From: Hyphomicrobiales bacterium
Lineage (GTDB): Bacteria; Pseudomonadota; Alphaproteobacteria; Rhizobiales; Xanthobacteraceae
Length of the DNA stretch: 64,000 bases
NCBI GenBank assembly: GCA_017305715.1
Contig: JAFKKG010000038.1
Coordinates: 1 to 64,000 of the forward strand
Direction of reading: 5' to 3'
The notes below the pieces were generated by a model that worked only from the letters and a program-made list of their open reading frames with translations, did not search any database and had not been told where the DNA came from. Made by a program: the position numbers and the translations under genes. Below are positions 2,089 to 26,524 of the stretch, piece after piece. Position 1 is the stretch's first letter. Every line of letters starts with the position of its first letter.

Positions 2089-3384
2089 TCAAGGCCGGGA
2101 CGACGAAGGCGATGATGCTTCCCTCGGCCGGAAATTCTCCACCAGCCGCAACAGCACCCTGGCCCCGGCATCCGCATCGGCCGTCTCGACATGCTCCGCC
2201 GGGTTGTGGCTGATGCCGCCGCGGCAGCGGACGAAGATCATGGCAACGTCGGCGACGTCGATCATCGCCATGCCGTCATGCCCCGCTCCGCTCGGCAGTT
2301 CGAACACGCCAAACCCTTCCGCGGCGACGGCATCCGCGACCTGCGCCTTCAGCCATGGCGCGCAGGGCACGGTGCGGTTTTCGTGGGTGACATCGAGTTG
2401 CAGGACGAGATCGCGGCGTTTGGCAATGGCCTCGATGCGGCGCACGATGTCGGCGACGGCCATCTTGCGGTGCGGATCGGACGGCGCGCGGATATCGAGG
2501 GTGAACGACACCATTCCGGGGATCACATTGGTGGCGCCGGGCATCGCGTCGATATAGCCGACGGTGCCGACGAGGCCGGCTTCATCGGTCTTGCAGAATT
2601 CCTCCACCATGCCGATGCATTCGGCGGCGCCCGCCAGCGCGTCGCGCCGCATCGCCATCGGCACGGTGCCGGCGTGACCGGCCATGCCGGTCAGCCTTGC
2701 CGCCAGCCGCGTGGCGCCGGCAATCGCGGTGACGACGCCGACCGCGAGGTCTTTTTGCTCCAGCACCGGCCCCTGCTCGATATGCAGTTCGACATAGGCG
2801 TGCAATTCGCGGCGGGCCCGCGCGGCGGCACCGATATGCTCGGGATCGAGGCCGAATTTCACCATTGCCTCGCGCATCGAGACGCCATCGCGGTCGCGCG
2901 CATTGAGCGCGCTCTCGACAAAGGTGCCGGCGACCGCCCGGCTGCCGAGCAACGTGGAGGCAAACCGCACGCCTTCCTCGTCCGCGAACCCGACCACTTC
3001 GACCGCGAACGGCAGCCGCCGCCCGCGCCGGTTCAGATCGGCGACGCAGGAGATCGCCGACAGCAATCCGAGCGGGCCGTCCCATTTGCCGGCGTCGCGC
3101 ACGGTGTCGTAATGGGAGCCCAGCATCAGGCACGGCAGGCCCGCATTTTCGCCTTCATAGCGCCCGCAGACATTGCCGATGGCGTCGAGATGCGCGGCCA
3201 TGCCGGCCTCGCGCATCCATGACAGAATGAGATCGGCGGCCGCGCGATGTTCTGATGACAGGAAGATCCGCGCCAGGTGCTCCGGCGTCTCTGAAATGGC
3301 CGCCAGCTGGTTGATGCGGGCGACGATCTCTTCGCCAAGCGCCGCCCTGCCCGATCCGCCGCTGGCCAATTCTGTCTTGCTCAT
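2089..3384 (-). CDS. allC: allantoate amidohydrolase (M20 peptidase family)
   Basis: 431 residues starting at ATG 3384. The family hydrolyses allantoate to ureidoglycine, ammonia and CO2 with two metal ions in the cytoplasm. The M20 metal-ligand motifs are all visible: GSHYDTV (H91), WDGPLG (D102), FADEEG (E136/E137), ELHIEQG (H201) and GGISHNPAE (H393). Length is normal for AllC and for the related N-carbamoyl-L-amino acid hydrolases, which cannot be told apart by these motifs alone. The purine island around it favours allantoate. It is divergent from the purine-type ABC operon across a 400-base spacer. I found no sigma-54 match on its own strand, so it may be expressed differently from its neighbours. 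Confidence 0.85.
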   Translation of the reverse strand: MSKTELASGGSGRAALGEEIVARINQLAAISETPEHLARIFLSSEHRAAADLILSWMREAGMAAHLDAIGNVCGRYEGENAGLPCLMLGSHYDTVRDAGKWDGPLGLLSAISCVADLNRRGRRLPFAVEVVGFADEEGVRFASTLLGSRAVAGTFVESALNARDRDGVSMREAMVKFGLDPEHIGAAARARRELHAYVELHIEQGPVLEQKDLAVGVVTAIAGATRLAARLTGMAGHAGTVPMAMRRDALAGAAECIGMVEEFCKTDEAGLVGTVGYIDAMPGATNVIPGMVSFTLDIRAPSDPHRKMAVADIVRRIEAIAKRRDLVLQLDVTHENRTVPCAPWLKAQVADAVAAEGFGVFELPSGAGHDGMAMIDVADVAMIFVRCRGGISHNPAEHVETADADAGARVLLRLVENFRPREASSPSSSRP

Positions 3385-3784
3385 GCTTTTCCAGTGCAGC
3401 GCCGCGCCGCCTGCGCTTGTCGATCGATACAAGTTCAATGCCAGCGATGATGACGCAAGTCACCGCTTCAGTCTGAGTGAGCAGCCGACAAAGGACGAAA
3501 ACCGGCGTCCATTTCAGCCGCTCCGCGGCCCTCGTCGACCTAACAATTGCTTAACGCTCTTGCATACAATCAAAAAATGGAGCCTAAAAATTGTACATTT
3601 TGGCTTTGCACAAAGTTTGAACTGAAGCTGTGATCACAAAATAACATAACATATTCATGTATTTATTTGCCGATGCCCATCAGATGCGCTCTGGCACGAA
3701 GATTGCGACATCCCTCCCAAGCCCGCCGTATCGGCGCGGCTGCGAAATATGGGGGCGGGTCTACCCGCCAGAGGGAGCAGGCAC
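3385..3784. promoter_or_regulatory. divergent control region between allC and the BMP-type ABC operon
   Basis: 400 bases without a gene. The part at 3540-3670 is clearly AT-rich against the surrounding GC-rich sequence, as expected for an upstream activator and promoter region. It contains a perfect 10-base palindrome TGTGATCACA at 3629-3638. A sigma-54 promoter for the rightward operon lies at 3692-3707 and is listed separately. A purine-rich ribosome binding site (AGAGGGAGCAGG) precedes the ATG at 3785. I could not identify a clear NtrC site. Confidence 0.6.
3692..3707 (+). promoter_or_regulatory. sigma-54 (-24/-12) promoter of the BMP ABC / biuret hydrolase operon
   Basis: TGGCACGAAGATTGCG matches the sigma-54 consensus TGGCACG-N4-TTGCW. 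The GG at 3693-3694 and GC at 3705-3706 have the required 10-base spacing. Transcription would start near 3718, leaving a leader of roughly 65 bases before the ATG at 3785. Sigma-54 control is the usual route for nitrogen-limitation genes in this group. Confidence 0.8.
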
Positions 3785-4897
3785 ATGGAATTTGGCAGGA
3801 TTTCACGACGGAATCTGTTGCAGGGCGGCGCGGCGCTGACACTCGGCTCCGCTTTCGGCATGGGGGCGGCGCGCGCAGCCGACACCACGATCGGCTTCAT
3901 CTATGTCGGCTCGCGTGACGACTACGGCTACAACCAGGCCCACGCCCAGGGCGCGGCGGCGCTGAAGAAGCTGCCCGGCCTCAAGGTGGTCGAGGAAGAG
4001 AAAGTCCCCGAGACCGACGCGGTCGAGAAGACCATCGAGTCCATGATCAATCTCGACGGCGCCTCCCTGCTGTTCCCGACCTCGTTTGGCTACTACAACC
4101 CGCACATGATCAAGATGGCCAAGAAGTTTCCAAAACTTCGCTTCGAACATTGCGGCGGGCTGTGGAGCGACACCGATCCCAAGAATGCCGGCAGCTATTT
4201 CGGTTATATCGACGAGGCCCAGTATATTTCCGGGATCGTTGCCGGCTACTCCTCCAAGAGCGGCAAGATCGGCTTCGTCGCGGCCAAACCGATCCCGCAG
4301 GTGCTGCGCAACATCAACGCGTTTGCGCTCGGTGCCAGGCTCGCCAATCCGAAGACCACCTGCCAGGTGATCTTCACCGGCGACTGGTCGATGCCGGTCA
4401 AGGAAGCCGAAGCCACCAACAGCCTGATCGACCAGGGCGTCGACGTCCTCACCTGTCACGTCGACGGTCCCAAGACCATGGTCGAGAACGCCGCGCGCCG
4501 CGGCGCCATGGTGTGCGGCTATCACGTCAACCAGTCGCCGCTGGCGCCGAAAGCCTACCTCACCGGCGCGGAGTGGAACTGGGAAGCGCTGTATCCGAAA
4601 TTCGTCAAGATGATCGCAGCCGGCGAAGCGATCCCGAACTTCTACCGCGGCGGTCTCAAGGAAGAGATCGTCAAATGCTCGCCCTATGGCGAGGCCGTCT
4701 CGGCCGAGGCGCGCAAGCACGCCGACGACGTCAAGGCAAAATTCCTGTCCGCGGAGGGCTACGCCGTCTTCAAGGGCGGCCAGCTCGACAACAAGGGCAA
4801 GACGGTGATCCCGGCCGGCACCGATCGCGGCCAGAAGGATCCCGAACTGGAGAAGATGGACTATCTGGTCGAGGGCGTGATCGGAGCGACTTCGTGA
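3785..4897 (+). CDS. BMP-family ABC transporter substrate-binding protein (purine/nucleoside or related N-compound)
   Basis: 370 residues. The start is ATG 3785, which follows a good ribosome binding site; upstream in-frame codons would put the signal peptide in the wrong place. It begins with a Tat-like signal (SRRNLLQGG, twin Arg at 8-9) and a probable cleavage after ARA at about residue 31. The rest is a PnrA/Med-type BMP domain, the periplasmic binding proteins of nucleoside and purine ABC importers. It is first in an operon of two permeases, a cysteine hydrolase, an ATPase and a deaminase. The ligand cannot be read from sequence; the neighbours suggest a purine, ureide or biuret-like nitrogen source. 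It is only distantly similar to the second BMP protein at 15206. Confidence 0.88.
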   Translation: MEFGRISRRNLLQGGAALTLGSAFGMGAARAADTTIGFIYVGSRDDYGYNQAHAQGAAALKKLPGLKVVEEEKVPETDAVEKTIESMINLDGASLLFPTSFGYYNPHMIKMAKKFPKLRFEHCGGLWSDTDPKNAGSYFGYIDEAQYISGIVAGYSSKSGKIGFVAAKPIPQVLRNINAFALGARLANPKTTCQVIFTGDWSMPVKEAEATNSLIDQGVDVLTCHVDGPKTMVENAARRGAMVCGYHVNQSPLAPKAYLTGAEWNWEALYPKFVKMIAAGEAIPNFYRGGLKEEIVKCSPYGEAVSAEARKHADDVKAKFLSAEGYAVFKGGQLDNKGKTVIPAGTDRGQKDPELEKMDYLVEGVIGATS

Positions 4898-6006
4898 CCA
4901 CCGAAACGGCGGATCGGGCGGAGGCGGCGGCCGGAGTTGCTCCGGCCGCCGATGCCGGCTTCCTGCAACGCTATGGTGCGACCATCGAATACATCCTGAT
5001 CCCGGGCGCCGCACTGGTCGGCGCGCTCGCGGTGTTCGGGATGTTCGTGGCGCTGTTCGGCAAGAACCCGCTCGATCTCTATTTCTACATGTACCAGGGC
5101 GCGTTCGGCACCTGGTTCTCCTGGCAGAACACGCTGACGCGCGCCGCGCCCCTGATCCTCACCGCGCTGTGTACGGCGCTGCCGGCGCAACTGGGCATGG
5201 TCATCATCGGCGGCGAGGGCGCGCTCCTGATCGGCGCGCTGTCGGCGACATCAGTCGCGCTGGCGATGCCCTGGGCGCCGCCGCTGGTCGTGCAAATCGC
5301 GATGGTGTGCGCCGGCGTGATCGGCGGCGGGCTGTGGATCACGCTGTCGGGCGCGCTTCGGCAATATCGCGGCGTCAACGAGACGATCTCGAGCCTGCTG
5401 CTGGTCTATATCGGGCTTGCGATCCTCAACCATCTGGTCGAGGGCATGATGCGCGACCCCGCCAGCCTCAACAAGCCGTCGACCCGCGAGATCGGCGCCG
5501 CCAACATGATCGGCAGCATTCCCGGCACCGACGTGCATTGGGGGCTGGTGTTCGGGCTGATCGCGGCATTCGCGTCCTACATCCTGATCTATCACACCGT
5601 GTTCGGGTTCTCGGCGCGCGTCGCCGGCGGCAACATCCGTGCGGCACGAATCGTCGGGCTCGGCGTCAACAAACTGATCCTGACGATCTGCTTCCTCGCC
5701 GGCGGGGCGGCGGGCCTGGCCGGCATGGTCGAGGTCGCCGCCGTGCAGGGCCGCACCAACGCCAACCTCGCCGCCGGCTATGGATTCACCGGCATCCTCG
5801 TCGCCTTCCTGGCGCGGCATAATCCGCTGGCGATCATTCCCGTCGCGATCCTGCTCGGCGGCATCAGCGCCAGCGGCGGGTTATTGCAGCGCCGGCTCGG
5901 CTTGCCGGATGCTTCGGTGCTGGTGCTGCAAGGCATCATCTTCGTGTTCGTGCTGGCGAGCGATGCGCTGTACGGCCGGATCGGCTTCCTGAAAGGAAAA
6001 ACCTGA
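4894..6006 (+). CDS. ABC transporter permease, BMP/nucleoside type, subunit 1
   Basis: 370 residues from a GTG at 4894 that overlaps the previous stop codon by four bases (GTGA), indicating translational coupling. After a short Ala-rich cytoplasmic N-terminus it shows about eight to ten hydrophobic segments. The cytoplasmic loop GGNIRAARIVG is the coupling region seen in permeases of the BPD_transp_2 (YufP/NupB) family. It pairs with the permease at 6008 to form the membrane channel of the importer. Confidence 0.88.
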   Translation: MTTETADRAEAAAGVAPAADAGFLQRYGATIEYILIPGAALVGALAVFGMFVALFGKNPLDLYFYMYQGAFGTWFSWQNTLTRAAPLILTALCTALPAQLGMVIIGGEGALLIGALSATSVALAMPWAPPLVVQIAMVCAGVIGGGLWITLSGALRQYRGVNETISSLLLVYIGLAILNHLVEGMMRDPASLNKPSTREIGAANMIGSIPGTDVHWGLVFGLIAAFASYILIYHTVFGFSARVAGGNIRAARIVGLGVNKLILTICFLAGGAAGLAGMVEVAAVQGRTNANLAAGYGFTGILVAFLARHNPLAIIPVAILLGGISASGGLLQRRLGLPDASVLVLQGIIFVFVLASDALYGRIGFLKGKT

Positions 6007-6007
6007 C

Positions 6008-6934
6008 ATGGCGGATGGATCGATCGGACTCTGGACCGTCCCATTGGCCGTATTCGGCGGCGCCATCCGCGTCTCGACGCCGTTCCTGTTCGTGAGCCTT
6101 GGCGAATGCATCACCGAGCGCTCCGGCCGCATCAATCTCGGCCTCGAAGGCACGCTGGTGATGGGCGCGATGAGCGCCTACGGCATTTCCTATCTGTCGG
6201 GCTCGCCCTGGCTCGGCGTGCTCGCCGCCGGCATCACCGGCGCGCTGCTCGGGGCGCTGCATGCCGGCATCTGTTCGCTGCCGCGGGTCAACGACATCGC
6301 GGTCGGCATCGCGCTGATGCTGTTCGGGACCGGCCTTGCCTTCTATCTCGGCAAGCCCTTGATCGAGCCCACGGCGGCACGATTGCCCGCGATCGATTTC
6401 GGCTGGTGGAGCGACGTGCCGCAGGTCCGCGCCGCGCTGCGGATCAACGTGCTGTTCCTGATCGGCGTGGCGCTGGCGCCGATATTGTACTGGGCGTTCA
6501 AGACCACCCGCTGGGGTCTGCTGATCCGCACCGCCGGCGAAAGTTCGGATGCGGCCCGCGCCATGGGCCATTCCGTGCTGGCGATCCGGCTGCGCGCCAC
6601 CATGGTCGGTGGTTTCCTGTCCGGGATCGGCGGCTCGTTCCTCTCGCTGTTCTATCCAGGTAGCTGGAACGAGGGGCTATCCTCGGGACAAGGCATCACG
6701 GCGGTGGCGCTGGTGATCTTCGCGCGCTGGGATCCGATGCTGTGTCTGTGGGCGTCGCTGGCGTTCGGCGGCGCGGCGGCGCTGGGGCCGGCGCTGCAAT
6801 CGGTCGGCGTCACCTCGGGCTATCATCTGTTCAACGCCGCGCCCTACATCCTGACGCTCGCGATCATGATCATCACCTGCTCGCCGAAGCGCACGCTGAC
6901 CGGCGCACCGGCCGAATTGTCCATCACCCGATAG
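6008..6934 (+). CDS. ABC transporter permease, BMP/nucleoside type, subunit 2
   Basis: 308 residues, ATG one base after the previous stop. A hydrophobic protein of the BPD_transp_2 (YufQ/NupC-like) family with the conserved early motif [18 protein letters not shown], also present in the equivalent permease of the second transporter at 14212. It forms the second half of the membrane channel. The gap of 13 bases to the cysteine hydrolase gene and the same strand place all six genes in one transcript. Confidence 0.88.
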
Positions 6935-6947
6935 GCGGAAGGAAGCC

Positions 6948-7631
6948 ATGCCCGAGCGCTACATCTCGTCCCAACCCTACGCCTGGCCCTATAATGGCGA
7001 CCTGCGCCCGCAAAATACCGCGATCATCATCATCGACATGCAGACCGATTTCTGCGGCGTCGGCGGCTATGTCGACAAGATGGGCTACGACCTGTCGCTG
7101 ACGCGCGCGCCGATCGAGCCGATCAAGAAGCTGCTCGCGGTGATGCGCGCGCAAGGCTTTCACATCATCCACACCCGCGAGGGCCACCGCCCCGACCTGA
7201 CCGACCTGCCCGCCAACAAGCAATGGCGCTCGCGGCAGATCGGCGCCGGGATCGGCGATCCCGGCCCCTGCGGCCGCGTGCTGGTGCGCGGCGAGGCCGG
7301 CTGGGAGATCATCCCTGATCTGGCGCCGCTGCCCGGCGAGCCGATCATCGACAAGCCCGGCAAGGGATCGTTCTGCGCCACCGATTTGGAGCTGATGCTG
7401 CGGCTGCGCGGCATCCAGAACATTGTGCTGACCGGCATCACCACCGACGTCTGCGTCCACACCACGATGCGGGAAGCCAACGATCGCGGCTTCGAATGCG
7501 TGCTGATCGAGGATTGCTGCGCCGCCACCGACAAGAGCAACCACGACCACGCGCTGAAGATGATCAAGATGCAGGGCGGCGTGTTCGGCGCGGTCGCGAC
7601 CTCGGCGGCGTTCATCGAGGCGGTGTCATGA
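6948..7631 (+). CDS. biuH: biuret amidohydrolase-like cysteine hydrolase (isochorismatase family)
   Basis: 227 residues, ribosome binding site GGCGGAAGG before ATG 6948. Isochorismatase-family fold. The catalytic triad is D30 (IIIDMQTDF), K136 (DKPGKGSF) and C169 (TTDVCVHT). The spacing equals what I recall for Rhizobium biuret hydrolase BiuH (D36, K142, C175), with a constant offset of six. The Gln reported there as a specificity residue (Q215) falls on Q209 here. The expected reaction is biuret to allophanate plus ammonia. A ureidoacrylate- or ureide-type amidase is the main alternative. Being placed between permease and ATPase genes of an importer suggests it acts on an imported compound. 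The ATPase gene overlaps its stop (ATGA). Confidence 0.7.
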
Positions 7632-9160
7632 TCATCGGCGAAGCGCCGCTCCCCGAAGGCCCGCTCGGCGTCGACGCCATCGCGGTCACCATGAAATTCG
7701 GCGATTTCCTGGCGCTCGACAATGTCGCGCTCAAGGTGCGGCCGGGTTCGTTCCATGCGCTGCTCGGCGAGAACGGCGCCGGCAAGAGCACGCTGGTGAA
7801 ATGCATCATGGGATATTACCACGCGACCGAGGGCGACATCCTGGTCGGCGGCCGCGAGCAGGCGATCGCCAACCCGAAGGACGCGCATGCGCTCGGGCTT
7901 GGCATGGTCTACCAGCACTTTACCCTGGTGCCGGCGATGACGGTCGCCGAAAACCTGGTGCTGGCGCGCGACGACGTTCCGGCGGTCGTCAATTGGGCGA
8001 AGGAAACGCAGGAGCTGGAAGCATTCCTGGCGCGGATGCCGTTCAAGGTGCCGCTCAATGCCAAGGTTTCCGACATTTCCGCCGGCGAGCGGCAGAAATG
8101 CGAGATTTTAAAGCAGCTTTACCTGAAGCGGCGCTTCCTCATCCTCGACGAGCCGACCTCGGTGCTGACGCCGGGCGAAGCCGACGAGGTGCTCGGCATG
8201 CTGCGCGACATGGTGGTTAGTGGCGGCCTGACCATCCTGATGATCACGCATAAATTCCGCGAGGTGATGGCGTTCGCCGACGAGGTCACGATCCTGCGCC
8301 GCGGCAAGCTGGCGGGCAACGGCAAGGTCGCCGACCTCACGCCCGACAGCATGGCGCGGATGATGATCGGCGCCGAGGAACTGACGGTGCAGCCGCCGCG
8401 CGTCGGGCAATTGGGCGAGGCGCGGCTGGAGCTGAGCCGGCTCAACGCCCTCGACGACGCCGGCGCCGTCGCGGTGCATGACGTCTCGCTCACCGTGCGC
8501 GGCGGCGAGATCGTCGGCATCGCCGGCGTCTCCGGCAACGGCCAGCGGCAACTGGTCGAGGTGCTCGCCGGCCAGCGCGAGGCCGAAAGCGGCGAGGTTC
8601 GTATTCGCGGCGACCTCTATTCGGCCAGCCGCGAGGAGATGCGGCGGCACAAGATGTCGCTGCTGCCGGAGGAGCCGCTGAAGAACGCCTGCGTCGGCGG
8701 CATGAGCGTCGCCGACAACATCGCATTCCGCGAATTCGACCGGGCGCCGTTTGCCAGCAAGGGCTGGTGGCTCAACAAATCGGCCTTCCGCAAGGTCGCC
8801 GAGCGCAAGATCGGGCTCTACAAGATCAAGACCCGCTCGCCGGACACGCCGATCTCGGCGCTCTCGGGCGGCAACGTGCAGCGCGCCGTGCTGGCGCGCG
8901 AACTCGGCGGCGAGGTCGAGGTGCTGATCGCGGCCAATCCCTGTTTCGGGCTGGATTTCGCCGCCGTCGCCCAGATCCATGCCGAGATCATGGCGGCCCG
9001 CAATCGCGGCGCCGCGGTGCTGCTGGTCAGCGAGGACCTCGACGAACTGCTCGAATTGTCGGATCGTCTGGTCGTGATGTTCCACGGGCAATTCGTCCAT
9101 GAAGCCCGCGCCAGCGAGGCCGATCTCACCGAGATCGGCCGGCACATGGCCGGGCATTAG
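7628..9160 (+). CDS. ABC transporter ATP-binding protein (two NBDs), BMP/nucleoside type
   Basis: 510 residues from ATG 7628, which overlaps the hydrolase stop by four bases. It contains two tandem nucleotide-binding domains, as in RbsA/YufO. The first is canonical: Walker [10 protein letters not shown] at about 47-55, signature ISAGERQ, Walker [10 protein letters not shown]. The second is degenerate, with SGNGQRQ replacing Walker A and IAANPCFG replacing Walker B, though its LSGGNVQR signature is kept. Such asymmetry is normal in this family. It powers the importer built from the products of 3785, 4894 and 6008. Confidence 0.9.
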
Positions 9161-9167
9161 GAGGCCG

Positions 9168-9668
9168 ATGGTCGATATTTCCGCGCTCAGTCCGGCGGAA
9201 CTCGACGCGCATTTCCTGCGGCGGTCGTTCGACGTCGCCCGCCGCGCCATGGCGCATGGCAATCATCCCTTTGGCGCGGTCCTGGTCGATCAACGCCGCA
9301 ACGTGCTGCTCGAGGCCGAGAACGGCTACATGCCCGCCCATGACGGCACCGCGCATGCCGAGCGCCTCCTGGCGACGCTGGCCTGCACCACCATCGACGC
9401 TCATGTCCTGCGCGGCGCCACGCTGTATTCGTCGGCCGAGCCCTGCGCGATGTGCGCCGGCGCGATCTACTGGGCCGGCATCGGCCGGCTGGTCTACGGC
9501 CTCAGCGAACACCGCCTGCGGGAAATGACCGGCAACCATCCGGAAAACCCGACGCTCGACCTGCCCTGCCGCGAGGTATTCGGCAGCGGCCAGCGCTCGA
9601 CCGAAGTGGTGGGGCCGCTGCTCGAGGATGAGGCTGCGGCGGTTCATGCCGGGGTGTGGGAGAAGTAG
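9168..9668 (+). CDS. nucleobase deaminase, guanine-deaminase-like (CDA fold)
   Basis: 166 residues; AGGAGG lies directly upstream of ATG 9168, eight bases after the ATPase stop. It is a cytidine-deaminase-fold zinc enzyme: the zinc ligand and proton shuttle are in TAHAERL, and the two cysteines are in EPCAMC. The overall layout (PFGAVLVD, HAE, PCxxC, AIYWAGIGRLVYG) matches small bacterial guanine deaminases and the related Nitrosomonas enzyme reported to deaminate guanine and ammeline. Guanine to xanthine would feed the xanthine dehydrogenase at 17987. tRNA adenosine deaminase is less likely, given length and context. Confidence 0.75.
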   Translation: MVDISALSPAELDAHFLRRSFDVARRAMAHGNHPFGAVLVDQRRNVLLEAENGYMPAHDGTAHAERLLATLACTTIDAHVLRGATLYSSAEPCAMCAGAIYWAGIGRLVYGLSEHRLREMTGNHPENPTLDLPCREVFGSGQRSTEVVGPLLEDEAAAVHAGVWEK

Positions 9669-17986: not shown

Positions 17987-18805
17987 ATGGACCTGAACAC
18001 CATCCGCGCCGTTGCGCATCCAGCCTCCCGGGAGCAATTGCCCGTTTGGACGGCAGGCGATGCTTGGCTCGCGGGCGGCACCTGGCTGTTCTCGGAACCG
18101 CAGGCGCATTTGAGCCGGCTGATCGATCTTGCCGACTTGAAATGGCCGGCGCTGACCATCGGCGAGACCGAACTATCGATTGCCGCGACCTGCACGGTGG
18201 CGCAGCTCGATGCCCTGGCCTGCCCGCCGGAATGGATCGCCGCGCCACTGATCAACCAGTGCTGCCGGGCGTTCCTCGCCTCGTTCAAGATCTGGAAGAC
18301 CGCGACCGTGGGCGGCAACATCTGCATGTCCTTGCCGGCGGGGCCGATGATCTCGCTGACCGCGGCGCTGGGCGGCATCTGCACCATCTGGCAAGCCGAC
18401 GGCGGCGAGCGAAAGATTGCGGTGGCCGATTTCGTCACCGGCGACCAGCGCAATGTGCTGGCATCAGGCGATCTGCTGCGGCAGATCGACATCCCGCTTG
18501 CAGCGCTGAAACGCCGCGCGGCGTTCCGGCAGATTTCGCTGACGCCGGTCGGCCGCTCGGCTGCGCTGTTGATCGGCAGTGTGACCCGTGACGGCATGGC
18601 GCTGACGGTGACCGCGTCCACCGCGCGGCCCGTGCAATTTGACTTTGCCGGGATGCCGACGACCAGGGACCTTCGTGACGCGATCCTGCAGCGCATTCCC
18701 GACAACCTCTATCACACCGACGTGCACGGCAAACCGATGTGGCGCAAGGCGATGACGCTGCGCCTGGCGGAAGAAATCCGCGGCGAATTGCAGGCGGCGC
18801 CATGA
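17987..18805 (+). CDS. xanthine dehydrogenase FAD-binding subunit
   Basis: 272 residues from ATG 17987; ATG 17957 is possible but would sit almost on the predicted transcription start. It belongs to the molybdopterin dehydrogenase FAD-binding family: AGGTWLFSE corresponds to the FAD pyrophosphate motif AGGTDL, and KTATVGGNICMSLPAG corresponds to the second FAD motif. The C-terminal CO-dehydrogenase-flavoprotein domain is short. It passes electrons from the iron-sulfur centres to NAD or another acceptor. The stop overlaps the start of the large subunit gene (ATGA), so the two are translationally coupled. Confidence 0.85.
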   Translation: MDLNTIRAVAHPASREQLPVWTAGDAWLAGGTWLFSEPQAHLSRLIDLADLKWPALTIGETELSIAATCTVAQLDALACPPEWIAAPLINQCCRAFLASFKIWKTATVGGNICMSLPAGPMISLTAALGGICTIWQADGGERKIAVADFVTGDQRNVLASGDLLRQIDIPLAALKRRAAFRQISLTPVGRSAALLIGSVTRDGMALTVTASTARPVQFDFAGMPTTRDLRDAILQRIPDNLYHTDVHGKPMWRKAMTLRLAEEIRGELQAAP

Positions 18806-21525
18806 GCATCGACGTCAATGGCAAGGCCTTCTCCGAATCCCCGCGAGCGGGCCAATGCCTGCGCACGTTCCTGCGCGAGCTCGGCCATTTCGGCGTCAAG
18901 AAGGGCTGCGATGCCGGCGATTGCGGCGCCTGCACGGTGCTGCTCGACGGCGAGCCGGTGCATAGCTGCCTGATCCCGGCGTTCCGCGCCGATGGCCACG
19001 CCGTGACCACGATCGAAGGTCTTGCGCCCGACGGCGGCCTGCATGCCATGCAGCAGGCGTTTCTCGATGCGCAGGGCTTTCAATGCGGCTTCTGCACCTC
19101 GGGCATGATCCTGACCTGCGCGTCGCTGAACCAGGCGCAGCGCCAGGATCTTGGCGCCTCGCTGAAAGGCAATATCTGCCGTTGCACCGGCTATCGCTCG
19201 ATCGAGGACGCGCTCAACGGCAAGAGCAATATCGAGGTCGCCGATGCCGGCACCGCGTTCGGCCGCAGCCTGCCCGCGCCCGCGGGCCCGAACGTGGTGC
19301 GCGGCGCGGAACGGTATACTTTCGACGTCGCGCCGGAGGGTCTGCTGCATCTGAAGATGCTGCGCTCGCCGCATCCGCACGCGAAGATCATTTCGATCGA
19401 CAAGAGCGCGGCGCTCCGCGTTCCCGGCGTGCATGCCGTACTGACATCGGAAGACGCCCCAGGCCGGCTGTTCTCGACGGCGCGGCACGAATGGGACTGG
19501 ATGGATCCTGACGACACCAAGGTGCTCGACACTGTCGTCCGCTTCATTGGCCAGAAAGTCGCCGCGGTGATCGCCGAGACCGAGGCGGCTGCCGAGGAGG
19601 GCTGCCGCAGGCTCAGGGTCGAATACGAGATCCTGCCCAATGTGATCGATCCTGCCGCGGCGATTGCGCCGGGCGCGCCTCTGATTCACAGCGACAAGAC
19701 CTCGAAACACCGTGTCGCCAACGCGGCCCGCAATATCGCGGCGGAAATCCATGGGGAGTTCGGCGATGTCGCGGCGGCGCTGGCACAGTCCGCCGTGACG
19801 TATGAAGGCACTTTCGCAACGCAGCGCGTGCAGCATGCCGCGCTGGAAACCCATGGCGGGCTGGCCTGGGTCGACGCCGACGGCGTACTGCATGTCCGCT
19901 CCAGCACGCAGGTGCCGTTTCTGACCCGGCGCGCGCTGGCCGATATCTTTGATTTGCCGCCCGACAAAGTTCGGGTGTTCTGCGAGCGCGTCGGCGGCGG
20001 CTTTGGCGGCAAACAGGAAATGTTCGTCGAGGATATCCTTGCCCTCGCGGCACTGAAGACCGGCCGTCCCGTCAAGTTCGAACTGACGCGGGAAGAGCAA
20101 TTCATTTCGACCTCGACGCGGCACCCGATGCAGGTCACCGTGAAAGCCGGCGCCGACAAGGACGGCAAACTGAGGGCGCTGCAGCTCGACGTGCTCTCCA
20201 ACACCGGCGCCTATGGCAACCATGCCGGCCCGGTGCTGTTTCATTCGGTCGGCGAATGCGTCAGCGTCTATAATTGCCCGAACAAGAAAGTCGACGGCGT
20301 CGCCGCCTACACCAACACCGTGCCATCGGGCGCGTTTCGCGGTTACGGCCTGCCGCAGACCATCCTTGCCGTCGAGGCCGCGATCGACGAGCTGGCAAGG
20401 CAGCTCGGCATCAGCCCGTTCGAAATGCGCCGCCGCAACATCGTCAAACCCGGCGACCCCATGCTGTCGCCGCCGGAATCCGAATATCATGACGTGATGT
20501 ATGGCAGCTACGGCCTCGACCAGTGCCTCGATCTGGTCGAGCGTGCGATGGCAACCGACGCGCCAAAGCCCAACCTGTCGGACGACTGGCTCATCGGCGA
20601 CGGCATCGCGCTGACCATGATCGACACCGTGCCGCCGGCCGGGCATTTTGCCGATTGCAGCGTGGGGCTGCGCGACGATGGCGGCTTCGACCTCACGGTC
20701 GGCACCGCCGAATTCGGCAACGGCACCGCGACCGTGCATCGGCAGATCGCAGCATCCGCGCTGGCGACAACGGTCGATCGCATTCATCTGCGCCAATCCG
20801 ACACCGCGCATGGCGGCCACGACACCGGCGCCTATGGCAGCGCCGGCATTTTCGTCGCCGGCAATGCGACGCAGGCAGCCGCCGAGAAACTGGCCGGCGA
20901 GCTGAAGCAATTCGCGGCGTCCTTGCTGGGCGAAAATCCGGATGCATGTACGCTTGATAACCACGCCACGGTCTGCGCCGGACGCCGCACGCCCTACGCG
21001 CTGCTCGCTGCCTCGGCGCGGTCGCTCGGCAAGACGCTGAGCGCCAGCGGCAATTCGTCCGGCACGCCGCGCTCGGTCGCCTTCAACGTGCAGGGTTTTC
21101 GCGTGGCGGTGAACAAATTCACCGGCGAGCTCAAGATCCTGAAAAGCGTGCAGGCCGCCGACGCCGGCCGCGTCGCCAATCCGATGCAGTGCCGCGGCCA
21201 GGTCGAGGGCGGCGTCGCGCAGTCGCTGGGAGCTGCGCTGTACGAGGAGATGGTGATCGACCAAGGCGGCCGCGTCATCAACCCGAAATTCCGCGACTAT
21301 CATCTGCCGTCGTTCGCCGATGTGCCGCGCACGGAAGTGTTGTTTGCCGATACGACCGACGCGCTGGGGCCGATGGGCGCCAAATCGATGAGCGAGAGCC
21401 CCTACAACCCGGTTGCCGCCGCGCTCGGCAACGCGATCGCGAACGCGACAGGTATTCGTTTCACGGCGACGCCGTTCAAGCCGGATCGGCTATGGCCGAA
21501 GCTGAATGAGAAGTTCGGGAAGTAG
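18802..21525 (+). CDS. xanthine dehydrogenase, fused 2Fe-2S and molybdopterin subunit
   Basis: 907 residues from ATG 18802. Residues 1-150 are a two-cluster iron-sulfur subunit: GCDAGDCGACTV for the plant-type cluster and GFCTSGM with ICRCTGYRS for the second. From about 165 on is the molybdenum-cofactor subunit with GGGFGGKQE, AFRGYGLPQ and a C-terminal Glu (E865, in KSMSESP) at the position of the catalytic base. Separate XdhA and XdhB chains are more common in bacteria; here Fe-S and Mo parts are joined while FAD is separate. Expected reaction: hypoxanthine or xanthine to urate. No XdhC or other cofactor-insertion gene is in the window. Other purine or aldehyde substrates are possible, but uricase follows directly. 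Confidence 0.85.
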   Translation: MSIDVNGKAFSESPRAGQCLRTFLRELGHFGVKKGCDAGDCGACTVLLDGEPVHSCLIPAFRADGHAVTTIEGLAPDGGLHAMQQAFLDAQGFQCGFCTSGMILTCASLNQAQRQDLGASLKGNICRCTGYRSIEDALNGKSNIEVADAGTAFGRSLPAPAGPNVVRGAERYTFDVAPEGLLHLKMLRSPHPHAKIISIDKSAALRVPGVHAVLTSEDAPGRLFSTARHEWDWMDPDDTKVLDTVVRFIGQKVAAVIAETEAAAEEGCRRLRVEYEILPNVIDPAAAIAPGAPLIHSDKTSKHRVANAARNIAAEIHGEFGDVAAALAQSAVTYEGTFATQRVQHAALETHGGLAWVDADGVLHVRSSTQVPFLTRRALADIFDLPPDKVRVFCERVGGGFGGKQEMFVEDILALAALKTGRPVKFELTREEQFISTSTRHPMQVTVKAGADKDGKLRALQLDVLSNTGAYGNHAGPVLFHSVGECVSVYNCPNKKVDGVAAYTNTVPSGAFRGYGLPQTILAVEAAIDELARQLGISPFEMRRRNIVKPGDPMLSPPESEYHDVMYGSYGLDQCLDLVERAMATDAPKPNLSDDWLIGDGIALTMIDTVPPAGHFADCSVGLRDDGGFDLTVGTAEFGNGTATVHRQIAASALATTVDRIHLRQSDTAHGGHDTGAYGSAGIFVAGNATQAAAEKLAGELKQFAASLLGENPDACTLDNHATVCAGRRTPYALLAASARSLGKTLSASGNSSGTPRSVAFNVQGFRVAVNKFTGELKILKSVQAADAGRVANPMQCRGQVEGGVAQSLGAALYEEMVIDQGGRVINPKFRDYHLPSFADVPRTEVLFADTTDALGPMGAKSMSESPYNPVAAALGNAIANATGIRFTATPFKPDRLWPKLNEKFGK

Positions 21526-21650: not shown

Positions 21651-22493
21651 TTACCCCCGCCCCACCGTGCACTCGATCTGGCCGTGCGGCTCGTCGGTCG
21701 GCAGGAACACGTCGTTGTTGTTATCGAGGCCGAACGCCGACAGGTTCATCGGGATGAAATGCATGTTCGGGCAGGCCATGCTGATCTCGGAAATCTCCGG
21801 CACCGCCGCCAGCGCCGCCTCGCCCATCCGGTAGAGGCTGTCCTGGACGCTCTTGCTGTAGGTCGTCGAAAACACTTCCAGCACGGTGTCCAAAATCTTC
21901 CTGTTGGCCACGGGATAGTTGGCCGGCTTGCCCGACCATTTCCACGACGCCACCATGCTGGTCGCGCACATCCGATCGGCGGTCGGCGGGATCGTGGTGT
22001 AGGAATCCTTGACGTAGTTCTCCCAGCCCGACTGCGTCGACTTCATGAAGGTAAAACCGTCGATGCCGGAGGCCATCGTGGTGGCGCCGCCGCGGACCGA
22101 CGACAATTCCACGGTCGGCTTGCCGTTGCTGTCGAGCACGAAGCTGTGCGGATGCGGCTTGCCGCCGAAACTCAAGCGGCTCCATTTGGTCTCATGCACG
22201 GTGAGCGCGACGGAGGCGATTTGCGGATAGGTGTCGAGATATTTCTTGGCCAGCACCTGGCAGAATTCCTCGGTGCAGAGGCCGGTGTTTTCACGGGCGA
22301 CGATGTTGACGACGTTCTTGATGGTGTCGGTCGAAACCGAGGTGGAATTGTCGCCGTGGGTATAGGCCGGCGCAAAGTCGCCTTCCATCATCGCCTTGAC
22401 GTTGAGCTGGCTGACCTCCTGGCGGTCGCCGTCGCGATGAATCCGCATCACGCGGACGCGGCCCTTCCCATATCTGTTCCTGATCAGCGGCAC
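21651..22493 (-). CDS. uricase (factor-independent urate hydroxylase)
   Basis: 280 residues from a GTG at 22493, chosen because a perfect GGAGG lies seven bases upstream. The open frame continues far upstream without coding character. Uricase oxidises urate to 5-hydroxyisourate with O2 and no cofactor. The charge-relay residues are in place: K10 (RYGKGRV), T55 (VSTDTIKN) and H245 (PNMHFIPMN). The FTFMKSTQSGW segment that binds substrate is also present. The product feeds the HIU hydrolase domain at 24207. A sigma-54 promoter lies at 22558-22573, and the gene is divergent from an NCS2 permease, presumably a urate/xanthine importer. Confidence 0.92.
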   Translation of the reverse strand: MPLIRNRYGKGRVRVMRIHRDGDRQEVSQLNVKAMMEGDFAPAYTHGDNSTSVSTDTIKNVVNIVARENTGLCTEEFCQVLAKKYLDTYPQIASVALTVHETKWSRLSFGGKPHPHSFVLDSNGKPTVELSSVRGGATTMASGIDGFTFMKSTQSGWENYVKDSYTTIPPTADRMCATSMVASWKWSGKPANYPVANRKILDTVLEVFSTTYSKSVQDSLYRMGEAALAAVPEISEISMACPNMHFIPMNLSAFGLDNNNDVFLPTDEPHGQIECTVGRG

Positions 22494-22557: not shown

Positions 22558-22573
22558 AGCAACGTTCGTGCCA
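22558..22573 (-). promoter_or_regulatory. sigma-54 promoter of uricase
   Basis: On the minus strand TGGCACGAACGTTGCT is a full match to TGGCACG-N4-TTGCW with correct spacing. The -12 element lies about 65 bases before the GTG at 22493. Confidence 0.85.
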
Positions 22574-22626: not shown

Positions 22627-22642
22627 TGGCACGCGCCTTGTA
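22627..22642 (+). promoter_or_regulatory. probable sigma-54 promoter of the NCS2 permease
   Basis: TGGCACGCGCCTTGTA has a perfect -24 half (TGGCACG) and TTG at -12, but the invariant C is T (GT in place of GC), so activity is less certain. It is about 44 bases before ATG 22686, and back-to-back with the uricase promoter. Confidence 0.45.
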
Positions 22643-22685: not shown

Positions 22686-24089
22686 ATGACCACGACCAGC
22701 GACATCCATCCGGTCGACCAGACGCTGCCGGCGCCGCGGCTGCTGGCGCTCGGCCTGCAGCACGTGCTCGTGATGTATGCCGGCGCGGTCGCGGTGCCCC
22801 TGATCATCGGCCGGGCGCTGAAGCTGCCGCCCGAAGACGTCGCCTTCCTGATCTCGGCCGACCTGTTCGCCTGCGGCCTCGCCACGCTGGTGCAATGTCT
22901 CGGCTTTCCCGGCGTCGGCATCCGGCTTCCTGTCATGATGGGGGTGACGTTCGCCTCGGTCGGGCCAATGCTGTCGATGGCCGCCGCGCCCGATATCGGC
23001 CTGCTCGGCATCTATGGTTCGGTGATCGCTGCCGGAATATTCGGCATCATTGCCGCGCCCTTCATCAGCCGGCTGCTGCCGCTGTTTCCGCCCGTGGTCA
23101 CCGGAACCATCATCCTGGTGATCGGCATCTCGCTGATGCGGGTGGGTATCAACTGGGCCGGCGGCGGCCTGCCGACCCTGACCAAAATGGTCGACGGCGT
23201 CCCCGGCGCCTTTCCCAATCCCGCTTATGGCCAGTTGCAGGGGCTCGGCATCGCGCTGTTCGTGCTGCTGGTGATCCTCGCGCTGATCAAATGGGGCAAA
23301 GGTTTCGTCGCCAATGTGGCCGTGCTGCTCGGCATCATCGCCGGCGCGGTGCTCGCCAGTATATTCGGCGTCATGCATTTCGAAAAAGTCGCAGCGGCCC
23401 CCCGGGGCGCGCTGGTGGTCCCGTTCCACTTCGGCATGCCGACATTCCATCTGGTGCCCATCATCACCATGTGCATCGTGATGATCGTAGTCATGATCGA
23501 GTCGCTCGGCATGTTCCTGGCGCTCGGCGAGATCACCGGCAAGAAGATCGATCGCGAGGCGCTGACGCGCGGCCTGCGCGCCGACGGCGTCGGTACCCTG
23601 CTCGGCGGCATCTTCAACACGTTCCCCTATACCTCGTTCTCGCAGAATGTCGGCCTCGTCAGCGTCACCGGCGTGCGCTCGCGCTGGGTCACGATATCAG
23701 GCGGCGCCATCATGCTGCTGCTCGGGCTGTTGCCGAAGATGGCAGCGTTGGTCGAGGCGGTGCCGCTGGTCGTGCTCGGCGGCGCGGGGCTTGTGATGTT
23801 CGGCATGGTGGCCGCGACCGGCGCGCGGATCCTGGCCACGGTGGATTTCAGGAACAACCAGTTCAATTTGTTCGTGGTCGCGATCTCGGTCGGCTTCGGC
23901 ATGATCCCGCTGGTGGCGCCGAACTTCTTCAAGAACCTGCCGCACGACCTGCACCCGCTGCTGGAGTCGGGCATCCTGCTTTGCGCGCTGGTCGCGGTGG
24001 TGCTGAACGCCTTCTTCAATGGCGTCGGCAGCAAGGCGGCGGCGGAAGCCGATGCCGCGGCGGCGGCGTCATCGGCGCAGCATGTGTGA
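22686..24089 (+). CDS. NCS2-family purine (urate/xanthine) permease
   Basis: 467 residues, ATG 22686 after AAAGGGGG. Proton symporter of the nucleobase-ascorbate (NAT/NCS2) family with 12-14 membrane segments. The family signature is present as SQNVGLVSVTGVRSR, and the upstream segment with IESLGMFLALGEITG provides the conserved Glu. Bacterial relatives import xanthine, urate or uracil; being divergent from uricase favours urate or xanthine. The C-terminus is an Ala-rich tail (KAAAEADAAAAASSAQHV). A dispersed repeat follows the stop and separates it from the convergent ureide operon. Confidence 0.88.
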   Translation: MTTTSDIHPVDQTLPAPRLLALGLQHVLVMYAGAVAVPLIIGRALKLPPEDVAFLISADLFACGLATLVQCLGFPGVGIRLPVMMGVTFASVGPMLSMAAAPDIGLLGIYGSVIAAGIFGIIAAPFISRLLPLFPPVVTGTIILVIGISLMRVGINWAGGGLPTLTKMVDGVPGAFPNPAYGQLQGLGIALFVLLVILALIKWGKGFVANVAVLLGIIAGAVLASIFGVMHFEKVAAAPRGALVVPFHFGMPTFHLVPIITMCIVMIVVMIESLGMFLALGEITGKKIDREALTRGLRADGVGTLLGGIFNTFPYTSFSQNVGLVSVTGVRSRWVTISGGAIMLLLGLLPKMAALVEAVPLVVLGGAGLVMFGMVAATGARILATVDFRNNQFNLFVVAISVGFGMIPLVAPNFFKNLPHDLHPLLESGILLCALVAVVLNAFFNGVGSKAAAEADAAAAASSAQHV

Positions 24090-24206: not shown

Positions 24207-25085
24207 CTAACTCCCCCGATACGTCGCGTAGCTCCACGGCGTCACCAGCAACGGCACGTGGAGGTGGCCTTCGGGATCGCTGACCGAAAAGCGCAGCGGG
24301 ATCTGATCGAGGAACGGCGGGTCCGACATCGGCACGTTACGCCGCGCAAAATATTCGCCGACGCGAAACAGCAGCTCATAATGCCCGATCGGCACCGGTC
24401 GGTCGCCGATCAGCGGCTGGTCGGTGCGGCCGTCGCTGTTGGTGACCGCACGCGCCACTACGCGGGACTCGCCGAGGTCGGACAGTTCGGTCAGGACGAC
24501 GGAAATTCCCGCCGCGGGTTTGCCGCTGTGGGTATCCAGCACATGGGTCGACAGCCGTCCGTTCACGGGCAAGCGATCATCCGCCGCGATCAGTTGGTCG
24601 AGACGCAGCGCCGCGATCCGGTATATTTCCGACAGCGAAACCTGGGTCTCGGTCTTCGCATCGTTCGGCAGCCGGCGTTCGAAATCGCGCAGGATGGAAT
24701 CCCGGGTCTGCCGGCGCGCGCAGACGATATAGGGGAAACCGAATTTGGCGCGGTAGGCATTGTTGGCACGCTCGAACGCCTCAAATTCCGCATCCGACAA
24801 CCGGTCGAGGCCGACGCTGTTTTGTTCGGCGCTGGATTCGGCGGTCAATCCGGCGGCGCGCTGGGTCTTGTTGGCCAGATCAGGATGCGCCTGGATCAGT
24901 GCAAGGTGGATGTCTGACGGCGCGCGATCGACCACGGCCCGCATCGCGTCGAACAGGGATTTGACGCTGACGAACGGCCGGGCGGCGGCGGCCTGTTCGG
25001 CGATCCATGGCGAATATTCAAAAATGTTGCCGAGAGCTTTGACGAAATCGTCCTGGCTGGCCGTGTTGAGATCGGAAAGCTTCAT
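24207..25085 (-). CDS. bifunctional OHCU decarboxylase / 5-hydroxyisourate hydrolase
   Basis: 292 residues from ATG 25085; ATG 25091 is also possible, but its GGGGA would then be too close. Residues 1-165 are OHCU decarboxylase (UraD): catalytic H67 in LIQAHPDLA, SSAEQ at 85-88 and the signature NAYRAKFGFPYIVCARR. Residues 175-292 are HIU hydrolase (UraH, transthyretin-like): LSTHVLDTHSGKPAAG with H181, R220, H276 and the diagnostic C-terminal YRGS. The order is decarboxylase then hydrolase, as in the plant allantoin synthase. Together the domains convert uricase product to (S)-allantoin. The protein contains no peroxisomal or other export signal. It is the third gene of the DUF3830-puuE operon. 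Confidence 0.93.
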   Translation of the reverse strand: MKLSDLNTASQDDFVKALGNIFEYSPWIAEQAAAARPFVSVKSLFDAMRAVVDRAPSDIHLALIQAHPDLANKTQRAAGLTAESSAEQNSVGLDRLSDAEFEAFERANNAYRAKFGFPYIVCARRQTRDSILRDFERRLPNDAKTETQVSLSEIYRIAALRLDQLIAADDRLPVNGRLSTHVLDTHSGKPAAGISVVLTELSDLGESRVVARAVTNSDGRTDQPLIGDRPVPIGHYELLFRVGEYFARRNVPMSDPPFLDQIPLRFSVSDPEGHLHVPLLVTPWSYATYRGS

Positions 25086-25099
25086 CGACATTCCCCGGC

Positions 25100-26032
25100 C
25101 TATCCAATGCTTGCGGCGTTCTCGGCCAGATGGGCAAGATGGGTGTGGAAATGCTGAGCGATCTGCAGCCGCGTCGGCACCCACACGCGATCATGCTTCT
25201 GGACGTAATCGAGGAAGCGTATCAGCGACGCCGCGCGGCCGGGCCGGCCGACGACGCGGCAATGCAGGCCGACCGACATCATCTTCGGCGAGGTCGCGCC
25301 TTCGGCGTAGAGCACATCAAAGCTGTCCTTCAAATAGGTGAAGAACTCGTCGCCGCCGCCAAAGCCCTGCGCGTTCACGAACCGCATGTCGTTGGCGTCG
25401 AGCGTATAGGGAATGACCAGATGCGGCGGCAGAGCGGGCGTCTTGATCCAGTATGGCAGATCATCGGCATAGGAATCGCAGAGATAAAGCAGGCCGCCGG
25501 CTTCCATCAGAAGCCGTAGCGTATTGATCGAGGAACGCCCGGTGTACCAGCCGAGCGGACGCTCGCCCGTCGCCTCGGTATGAACGCGGATCGCCTCGGC
25601 GATTTCCCGGCGCTCCTCGGCTTCCGACATGTCCTTGTGCTCGATCCATTTCAGGCCGTGGCTGGCGATATCCCAGTCCGCTTCCTTCATGGCGGCGACC
25701 ACTTCGGGATTGCGTTGCAGCGCGGTGGCGACGCCGAACACGGTGGCCGGCATCTTGCGTTCGGTGAACATCCGCCACAGCCGCCAGAAGCCAGCGCGTG
25801 AACCATATTCGAACATCGATTCGATATTGGCGTGGCGCTGGCCCGGCCAGGGCTGCGCGCCCAGCACATCGGACAGGAACGCCTCCGAGGCCTTGTCCCC
25901 GTGCAAAATGTTGTTCTCGCCGCCCTCTTCGAAATTCACCACGAACTGCACGGCGACCCGTGCATTACCGGGCCAGTGCGGATCGGGCGGGTTGCGGCCG
26001 TAGCCGCGCAGATCGCGCGGGTAACCCGTCAC
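25100..26032 (-). CDS. puuE: allantoinase PuuE (polysaccharide deacetylase-like)
   Basis: 310 residues starting at a GTG at 26032 that directly follows the stop codon of the DUF3830 gene (TAG then GTG). Metal-independent allantoinase of the NodB-like fold, as known from Pseudomonas. Visible landmarks are FVVNFEEGGENN, GSRAGFWRLWRMF, the conserved DIASHGLKW segment, LGWYTGRSS and CDSYADDLPYW. The reaction is (S)-allantoin plus water to allantoate, which feeds AllC at 2089. The 14-base gap to the OHCU/HIU gene shows a single transcript. Confidence 0.9.
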   Translation of the reverse strand: MTGYPRDLRGYGRNPPDPHWPGNARVAVQFVVNFEEGGENNILHGDKASEAFLSDVLGAQPWPGQRHANIESMFEYGSRAGFWRLWRMFTERKMPATVFGVATALQRNPEVVAAMKEADWDIASHGLKWIEHKDMSEAEERREIAEAIRVHTEATGERPLGWYTGRSSINTLRLLMEAGGLLYLCDSYADDLPYWIKTPALPPHLVIPYTLDANDMRFVNAQGFGGGDEFFTYLKDSFDVLYAEGATSPKMMSVGLHCRVVGRPGRAASLIRFLDYVQKHDRVWVPTRLQIAQHFHTHLAHLAENAASIG

Positions 26033-26446
26033 CTAGACTTCCTCGAAACGGATTTTTTGCGCGCCCTTCCACAGCACGGTCTTGCCGAAGGCGGTGAGAT
26101 TCTCCAGCCCCGAGGTCAGGGTGATGAAATGGTTGCCGGCGAGTTGGCCCATCTTGCTGGCGAAATGCACGCCGCCATAGGCGAGCAGGATTTCGGTTTC
26201 GCTGATGCCGCCGGGATAGAGGATGATCTGGCCCGGCGCGGGATAGCTCGTGTGGTTCTCGTAGGAGACGCCGAAATCGAGATCGCCGAGCGGCATCCAG
26301 ACGCCCTCGCCGCTCCAGCGGACATGGATCGCCTGGCTTTCGAACGGCATCGCCTTGCGAAAGGCGGCCGCCGTCTTGGGCGCCAGTTGCTCCTCAAAAC
26401 GGGCTTCAAAGGTGAAGTCGCCGGCGCGGACGATCAGTTTGCTCAT
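26033..26446 (-). CDS. DUF3830 family protein (cyclophilin-like)
   Basis: 137 residues from ATG 26446. I recognise DUF3830 from the pattern FEARFEEQLAPKTAAAFRKAMPF and the ending segment, a cyclophilin-like beta-barrel. The family has no established function that I know of, although it is repeatedly found beside ureide and hydantoin-type genes. Here it leads the operon with PuuE allantoinase and the OHCU/HIU enzyme, zero bases apart from puuE, which points to a role in allantoin handling such as a racemase or a chaperone-like step. This role is inference. A sigma-54 candidate lies upstream. Confidence 0.8.
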   Translation of the reverse strand: MSKLIVRAGDFTFEARFEEQLAPKTAAAFRKAMPFESQAIHVRWSGEGVWMPLGDLDFGVSYENHTSYPAPGQIILYPGGISETEILLAYGGVHFASKMGQLAGNHFITLTSGLENLTAFGKTVLWKGAQKIRFEEV

Positions 26447-26508
26447 CGATCTCTTCTCTCGGGTGCGGACAGGGTTCAGCCCTATCCATTGCAGCCGGGA
26501 TTAGCGGA

Positions 26509-26524
26509 AGCAAGGACCATTCCA
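26509..26524 (-). promoter_or_regulatory. sigma-54 promoter of the DUF3830-puuE-OHCU/HIU operon
   Basis: On the minus strand TGGAATGGTCCTTGCT has TGG at -24 and TTGCT at -12, with ten bases between GG and GC. The -12 end is about 63 bases before ATG 26446. It closely resembles the candidate of 8-oxoguanine deaminase (17894-17909). Confidence 0.65.

What the first reader, a model, noticed from the sequence alone, without database searches (positions are those of the whole stretch)
2089..26524. A 24-kb purine-to-allantoate island that looks like one RpoN regulon
The island contains almost every step from guanine/8-oxoguanine to allantoate plus two ABC importers and a permease, in at least seven transcription units. 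Five of them have sigma-54 matches (3692, 17894, 17924, 22558/22627, 26509). allC and the second ABC operon lack an obvious match, suggesting different control. I have not seen this set described as a single sigma-54 regulon; that statement rests on memory only.
Basis: partly seen in the sequence, partly recalled or inferred. Interest (0 to 1): 0.75.

Follow-up and report, generated by a model that had tools for sequence, protein, structure and literature searches.

The report
Sigma-54 purine and triuret scavenging genes
A soil bacterium of the Bradyrhizobium group carries a cluster of purine-eating genes most of whose switches look like the 'nitrogen is scarce' type and are kept in its relatives, and the same type of switch also sits before genes for breaking down triuret and biuret, possible leftovers of damaged uric acid.

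Summary
Internal genes give 0/19, 0/24, 0/17. ABC operon B has none (0/30) but another conserved promoter region; allC has no conserved site of its own, yet lies directly behind uricase in nine relatives. So it is mostly, not wholly, one RpoN regulon. Part is in print: a 2026 Bradyrhizobium DOA9 paper lists what looks like operon A's site, and Burkholderia cenocepacia xdh and urate oxidase genes are sigma-54/NtrC targets. New here: operon A encodes a biuret hydrolase; the same genome, probably just left of the window, encodes a triuret hydrolase with a sigma-54 site in 30/30 genus loci; its allophanate hydrolase gene has one too (one genome). The regulon seems to join purine breakdown to triuret-biuret salvage, which makes urate oxidation a testable natural source of triuret. 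The activator (NtrC?) and all expression are inferred, not shown.

The parts
2089..3384 (-). allC-like allantoate amidohydrolase
   Evidence: NF006775 556 bits, cut-off 479. No conserved sigma-54 site; directly behind uox in nine relatives.
3547..3570 (+). Conserved upstream block TTGCTTAACGCTCTTGCATACAAT, possible regulator site
   Evidence: Conserved in the 32-row alignment; unique in the window, 0 expected.
3692..3707 (+). sigma-54 site of operon A
   Evidence: 30 of 30 genus loci, 71-77 nt before the start.
3785..9668 (+). Operon A: BMP-type binding protein, permease, permease, biuret hydrolase (6948-7631), ATPase, CDA-family deaminase
   Evidence: binding protein best PDB match AtzT 6PI5; BiuH 419 bits, cut-off 370, best PDB match 6AZO, BiuH diagnostic residues YYSDTV.
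9886..10992 (-). Unidentified conserved ORF between operons A and B, outer-membrane-like by eye
   Evidence: No Pfam or NCBIfam (389-aa ORF form) or PDB match; orthologue in the same place in several relatives; AlphaFold model unusable, pLDDT 30.
11305..11485 (+). Conserved non-sigma-54 upstream region of operon B, with TTGCTCAAC (11305, +) and TTGCTGAACAGTTGAGCAA (11467-11485)
   Evidence: no sigma-54 site in 30 of 30 loci.
11579..16285 (+). Operon B: ATPase, permease, permease, BMP-type binding protein
   Evidence: binding protein best PDB match 3S99.
16493..17842 (-). 8-oxoguanine deaminase
   Evidence: NF006055 672 bits, cut-off 532; PDB matches 3HPA, 7WW2.
17894..17909 (-). sigma-54 site of the deaminase gene
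   Evidence: 20 of 23 loci, two or so of them in another register.
17924..17939 (+). sigma-54 site of xdh
   Evidence: 23 of 24 loci; 14 nt from the divergent site, 3-28 nt in relatives.
17987..21525 (+). Xanthine-dehydrogenase-like FAD subunit and fused FeS-Mo subunit
   Evidence: Pfam and NCBIfam domains, below Xdh equivalog cut-offs.
21651..22493 (-). Uricase
   Evidence: TIGR03383 295 bits, cut-off 168.
22558..22573 (-). sigma-54 site of uricase
   Evidence: 34 of 34 loci, 55-67 nt before the start.
22627..22642 (+). sigma-54-like site of the permease, TTGTA at -12
   Evidence: 16 of 17 with G[CT], 4 of 17 with GC.
22686..24089 (+). Xanthine/uracil-type permease
   Evidence: PF00860 325 bits.
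24207..26446 (-). DUF3830 - puuE - uraD/HIU hydrolase operon
26509..26524 (-). sigma-54 site of the DUF3830 operon
   Evidence: 11 of 19 loci strict; GGAA...CTTGC kept in 16 of 19 (alignment); lost in L020, L021, L033.

Best explanation
The island is a purine nitrogen-scavenging cluster of Bradyrhizobium. Six promoters of the -24/-12 type drive a guanine-type ABC importer with biuret hydrolase and a deaminase (operon A), 8-oxoguanine deaminase, xanthine dehydrogenase, uricase, a purine permease and allantoin synthesis and opening. Under nitrogen shortage sigma-54 polymerase, opened most likely by phosphorylated NtrC, transcribes them together (inferred). Operon B is on a separate, non-sigma-54 promoter; allC is not on a conserved one in this arrangement. 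The regulon reaches beyond the island: a triuret hydrolase gene and the allophanate hydrolase gene of the same genome also have sigma-54 sites, so that triuret -> biuret -> allophanate -> ammonia can run alongside urate -> allantoate. Shown here: gene families, site positions, conservation. Inferred: use of the promoters, the activator, the flow of metabolites.
For: Position and chance: 6 of 50 upstream regions reach 85%, 0.7 expected, and the 2 antisense hits are two of the same sites. Conservation by one strict rule (GG-N10-GC, at least 9 of 12 consensus letters, within 110 nt): uox 34/34, xdhF 23/24, 8ogd 20/23, duf3830 11/19, uap 4/17 (16/17 if GT is allowed), A_bmp 30/30, trtA 30/30; negative controls puuE 0/19, xdhM 0/24, B_perm2 0/17, B_atp 0/30. 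The uox site persists although the neighbouring gene changes, and little else in that spacer is conserved. Independent data: PMC13207237 Table 1 lists TGGCACGAAGCTTGC at -73/-76 of a BMP-family binding protein and at -76 of a cytidine/dCMP deaminase, BRADOA9_v1_51377 and 51382, six consecutive tags as in six-gene operon A; that these are operon A is my inference (passages and part 1 of the table section seen). It also reports atzF down in rpoN mutants. PMC5491218: xdh and a urate oxidase cluster are common sigma-54/NtrC targets in B. cenocepacia (passages). Activator by elimination: of 8 PF00158 hits in the genome 5 are strong: NtrC and NtrX by passing their models, one unnamed response regulator and one AcoR-like protein passing none, one FlbD-like by eye; none lies in the window. 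AtzF present at 802 bits, cut-off 511, with an 11-of-12 site 124 nt before its ORF.
Against: No expression data. The raw pattern is not enriched in the window. NtrC-type sites (consensus recalled) are not significantly enriched (26 against 18.3 expected, 10 of 100 shuffles reach 26) and none lies in an island spacer; a GC-N11-GC dyad idea failed (9 places against 13 for the control). The DUF3830 site is lost in close relatives L020 and L021; the permease site lacks the canonical GC in 13 of 17. The 8ogd and xdh sites lie so close that both can hardly be occupied at once. Orthologues are related by descent, so counts are not independent events, and a few loci may be of one species.
Confidence: 0.75

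Rival explanations
1. The sites are real sigma-54 promoters but the activator is not NtrC: NtrX, the unnamed response regulator (L051) or a purine-sensing activator opens them, so the trigger is the substrate rather than general nitrogen shortage.
For: No NtrC-like site in the spacers; operon A has its own conserved far-upstream block.
Against: Only five strong activator genes in the genome and none in or near the island; in B. cenocepacia NtrC is the activator of the equivalent genes.
Confidence: 0.25
2. Two layers: sigma-54 for nitrogen shortage plus a GntR/FCD-type repressor for the substrate. TTGTACACAA abuts the -24 element of trtA, and TTGCATACAA lies about 120 nt before the -24 of operon A.
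For: ATTGTACACAATGGCA at trtA in 26 of 30 loci; a GntR-FCD gene lies beside trtA in some genomes, the own one included.
Against: The own genome and G109, G012 lack the trtA element; L170-L172 keep it without the GntR gene in the fetched stretch, so gene and element do not go together.
Confidence: 0.3
3. Operon A serves cyanuric acid or s-triazine use and only happens to lie beside purine genes.
For: Its binding protein resembles AtzT and its hydrolase is biuret hydrolase; the AtzD/barbiturase family occurs in 89 of 146 genus genomes and lies near the cluster in G031 and G004.
Against: The own genome has no PF09663 gene; AtzT binds guanine best of the compounds tested, KD 0.11 uM (PMC6834077, passages); the same neighbours surround operon A in G008, G162, G100 and G022.
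Confidence: 0.12
4. The -24/-12 sites are chance matches.
For: Raw counts in the window are not above chance.
Against: Position and conservation with negative controls at 0.
Confidence: 0.04

Closest known systems
NtrC/sigma-54 purine genes of Burkholderia cenocepacia H111 (PMC5491218)
   Same: xanthine dehydrogenase and a urate oxidase cluster depend on sigma-54 and NtrC.
   Different: Genes are at separate loci there by their numbers; in the passages seen no operon A or triuret hydrolase is named, and there the ntrC mutant grew better on biuret and uric acid in Biolog plates.
RpoN targets of Bradyrhizobium sp. DOA9 (PMC13207237)
   Same: Table 1 lists the -24/-12 site of a BMP binding protein and deaminase that look like operon A.
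   Different: Listed as separate transport and other genes; no purine cluster, uricase or trtA named in what I saw.
atz operons of Pseudomonas sp. ADP (AtzRSTUVW, AtzDEGHF)
   Same: AtzT-like importer, biuret or allophanate chemistry, sigma-54 promoters induced by nitrogen starvation (PMC6834077).
   Different: Cyanuric acid pathway with the AtzR regulator; no purine enzymes.
trtA-biuH-atzF operons of Herbaspirillum, Rhizobium leguminosarum and nitrifiers (PMC7948467, PMC12625717)
   Same: Triuret and biuret hydrolases, and in nitrifiers a BMP-type transporter.
   Different: Here biuH lies in the purine cluster and trtA beside allC or uox, each with its own sigma-54 site.

Membership tests
sigma-54-dependent promoter | GG and GC doublets ten bases apart in TGGCACG-N4-TTGCW, before the gene on its strand | tested here: met
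   Five of six sites have GG-N10-GC; uap has GT.
sigma-54-dependent promoter | Conserved in orthologous spacers beyond controls | tested here: met
   weaker for duf3830 (11/19) and uap (4/17 strict).
sigma-54-dependent promoter | Transcription lost without rpoN; 5' end about 12 nt after GC | not testable with these tools
   Only DOA9 data for what looks like operon A.
NtrC regulon | NtrC binding site upstream | tested here: not met
   No match of the recalled consensus in an island spacer.
NtrC regulon | ntrC gene present | tested here: met
   TIGR01818 744 bits, cut-off 559.
NtrC regulon | Expression lost in an ntrC mutant | not testable with these tools
   -
Single purine regulon including allC and operon B | All units share the promoter type | tested here: not met
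   B_atp 0/30; allC 0/10 strict, the nine relatives of that set having allC behind uox.
Biuret hydrolase (BiuH), window 6948-7631 | Curated family score and the six published BiuH-type residues | tested here: met
   419 bits, cut-off 370; YYSDTV (residue list from PMC7948467).
Triuret hydrolase (TrtA), G000:C1:567880-568587 | Closer to TrtA than BiuH, and the six TrtA-type residues | tested here: met
   280 against 224 bits; FNAEYI in the own gene and in 30 of 30 genus loci.
Xanthine dehydrogenase | Curated Xdh score | tested here: not met
   530 against 780 bits; works like one by domains and context.

The most novel reading that the evidence does not exclude
One nitrogen-shortage (sigma-54) regulon in Bradyrhizobium joins enzymatic purine breakdown to salvage of oxidised urate: triuret hydrolase, biuret hydrolase and allophanate hydrolase genes carry the same promoter type as uricase and 8-oxoguanine deaminase, and trtA is inherited beside allC or uox. 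Triuret, whose natural source is called unknown in the TrtA paper, would then be an expected by-product of living on purines.
Probability: 0.35. Interest if true: 0.7.

Novelty: new variant of a known kind. Interest (0 to 1): 0.5.

Why it matters
It gives a genus-wide, testable picture of how a major group of soil and root-nodule bacteria turns on purine use, in plants that move nitrogen as ureides. It ties the triuret and biuret hydrolases, so far linked mostly to fertiliser impurities and herbicides, to purine metabolism, and so makes the open question of where triuret comes from in nature directly testable.

Tried and rejected
Riboswitch in the leaders: no Rfam match of weight in the window, best below its gathering score. 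NtrC dyads: not found in spacers. A shared GC-N11-GC dyad TGCTYA-N5-TRAGCA: 9 places against 13 for the reversed control, rejected. TTGCTYAAC as an element common to operons A and B: 3 in the window, 0.39 expected, 1 of 100 shuffles reaches 3, kept only as a lead. allC's own site TGGCATTGAACTTGTA (3428-3443): only 76% and not found in L007 or L017, rejected. sigma-54 at trtA as a general feature of the order: 9 of 9 further genus loci, 5 of 18 outside the genus, so it is a feature of the genus and its close kin. My note says 4 of 17 there; the correct count is 5 of 18. Outer-membrane ORF: no PDB match, AlphaFold model useless with 3 sequences, so no fold search was made. Franck et al. on the B. 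japonicum NtrC regulon (recalled) is not held, so overlap with it is unknown. Papers PMC4842269 and PMC5748707 gave nothing on these genes in the passages seen; their supplements were not available to me.
Full report
What is there. The window is the start of contig 29 of a 7.45 Mb genome whose relatives by uricase are named Bradyrhizobium in 28 of 29 records, one being an unnamed 'bacterium'. Between 2089 and 26524 lie allC, a six-gene ABC operon A with biuret hydrolase and a small deaminase, an unidentified conserved ORF, a four-gene ABC operon B, 8-oxoguanine deaminase, xdh-like genes, uricase, a purine permease and a DUF3830-puuE-uraD operon. The six sigma-54 sites are all present.

More than chance? 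The pattern as such is not enriched. The six sites are nevertheless the six best of 50 upstream regions, with 0.7 expected at that score; the two antisense hits are the back-to-back 8ogd and xdhF sites themselves.

I took orthologues from 8 relatives with uricase (9 of 60 searched genomes have it, the own one included, all 9 within the 36 of the genus), from 29 named records, and, for operons A and B, 30 loci each out of the 94 and 107 of 146 genus genomes with a match. With one strict rule: uox 34/34, xdhF 23/24, 8ogd 20/23 (L033 and L041 in a shifted register), duf3830 11/19, uap 4/17 (16/17 with GT), A_bmp 30/30, B_atp 0/30, allC 0/10; internal genes puuE 0/19, xdhM 0/24, B_perm2 0/17. Re-fetched copies of the same record were dropped before counting, by the skip list in those scripts. 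In the uox spacer little but the two sites is conserved. The permease site keeps TTGTA at -12, which is unusual. The 8ogd and xdhF sites lie back to back, 14 nt apart here and 3-28 nt in relatives.

Where the single-regulon idea stops. Operon B has a long conserved promoter region of another type. allC has no conserved site here, but in nine relatives it follows uox at a short gap on the same strand, so there it is probably read from the uox promoter.

What operon A is. Its binding protein is closest in the PDB to AtzT (6PI5), which holds guanine at 0.11 uM (PMC6834077, passages); operon B's is closest to 3S99, in which adenine was modelled. Its hydrolase is a biuret hydrolase by family score, best structure match and all six discriminating residues (in four of eight relatives my pattern could not read one of the six). 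The small deaminase matches several deaminases, guanine deaminase among them at lower score, so guanine as its substrate is a guess.

Beyond the window. The same genome has a second isochorismatase-family gene at C1:567880-568587 that is closer to the triuret hydrolase TrtA (6XIX, 280 bits) than to biuret hydrolase (224 bits) and carries all six TrtA residues, as do 30 of 30 genus loci. 138 of 146 genus genomes have a match. All 30 loci examined have a strict sigma-54 site 26-69 nt before it; outside the genus only 5 of 18 do. It lies 5-16 kb from operon A in G109, G126, G162, G025, G156 and G032, but about 3 Mb away in G008. In lineages with uox-allC it follows them (L024, L026, L027, L028). 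Contig C1 ends with trtA, a BMP gene, a GntR gene, DUF1989 and a CN-hydrolase gene, and contig 29 begins with the ORF at 477-1838, allC and operon A; G109 and G162 have this order in one piece, G109 without the BMP, GntR and DUF1989 genes. So trtA probably lies a few kb left of the window; this is an inference from synteny across an assembly gap. The own genome lacks the AtzD family, has allophanate hydrolase, and that gene has an 11-of-12 sigma-54 match 124 nt upstream (one genome, conservation not tested).

Mechanism. Nitrogen shortage, NtrC by elimination among five strong activator genes, sigma-54 polymerase at the six promoters. No activator site could be found, which counts against a confident NtrC claim. 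Leads for a second layer: the TTGCATACAA block of operon A, ATTGTACACAAT abutting the trtA -24 element in 26 of 30 loci, the half-site TTGCTYAAC before A and B.

Known and new. sigma-54/NtrC control of xdh and urate oxidase genes is known in B. cenocepacia. What looks like operon A is listed as an RpoN target in DOA9; whether it was itself among the changed genes I did not see. BMP transporters beside biuH and trtA are known in nitrifiers. I found no description of the Bradyrhizobium purine cluster as a sigma-54 regulon in searches, and no mention of sigma-54 in the passages on trtA (the hits for 'sigma' there are a supplier's name and crystallography terms). The natural source of triuret is called unknown and suspected to be urate oxidation in PMC7948467; the shared promoter type and neighbourhood described here are genetic evidence in that direction, not proof.

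Noticed in passing
window 9886-10992 (-): Conserved ORF without family match between operons A and B; possibly an outer-membrane channel.
   Followed up: partly
window 477-1838 (-): ORF without Pfam or NCBIfam match that lies next to allC in several relatives.
   Followed up: no
window 17894-17939: Two divergent sigma-54 sites 14 nt apart (3-28 nt in relatives), too close for both to be occupied at once.
   Followed up: partly
window 22627-22642: sigma-54-like site conserved with GT in place of GC at -12.
   Followed up: partly
window 11305-11578: Long, strongly conserved non-sigma-54 promoter region of operon B, including a palindrome-like element found once in the genome at up to one mismatch.
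   Followed up: partly
L006 (G031:C1:2090247-2091335) and G004:C1:486492-487580: AtzD/barbiturase-family gene inside or near the purine cluster in these genomes.
   Followed up: no
L134:9895-10608 (-): GntR/FCD regulator gene beside trtA in the own genome.
   Followed up: partly
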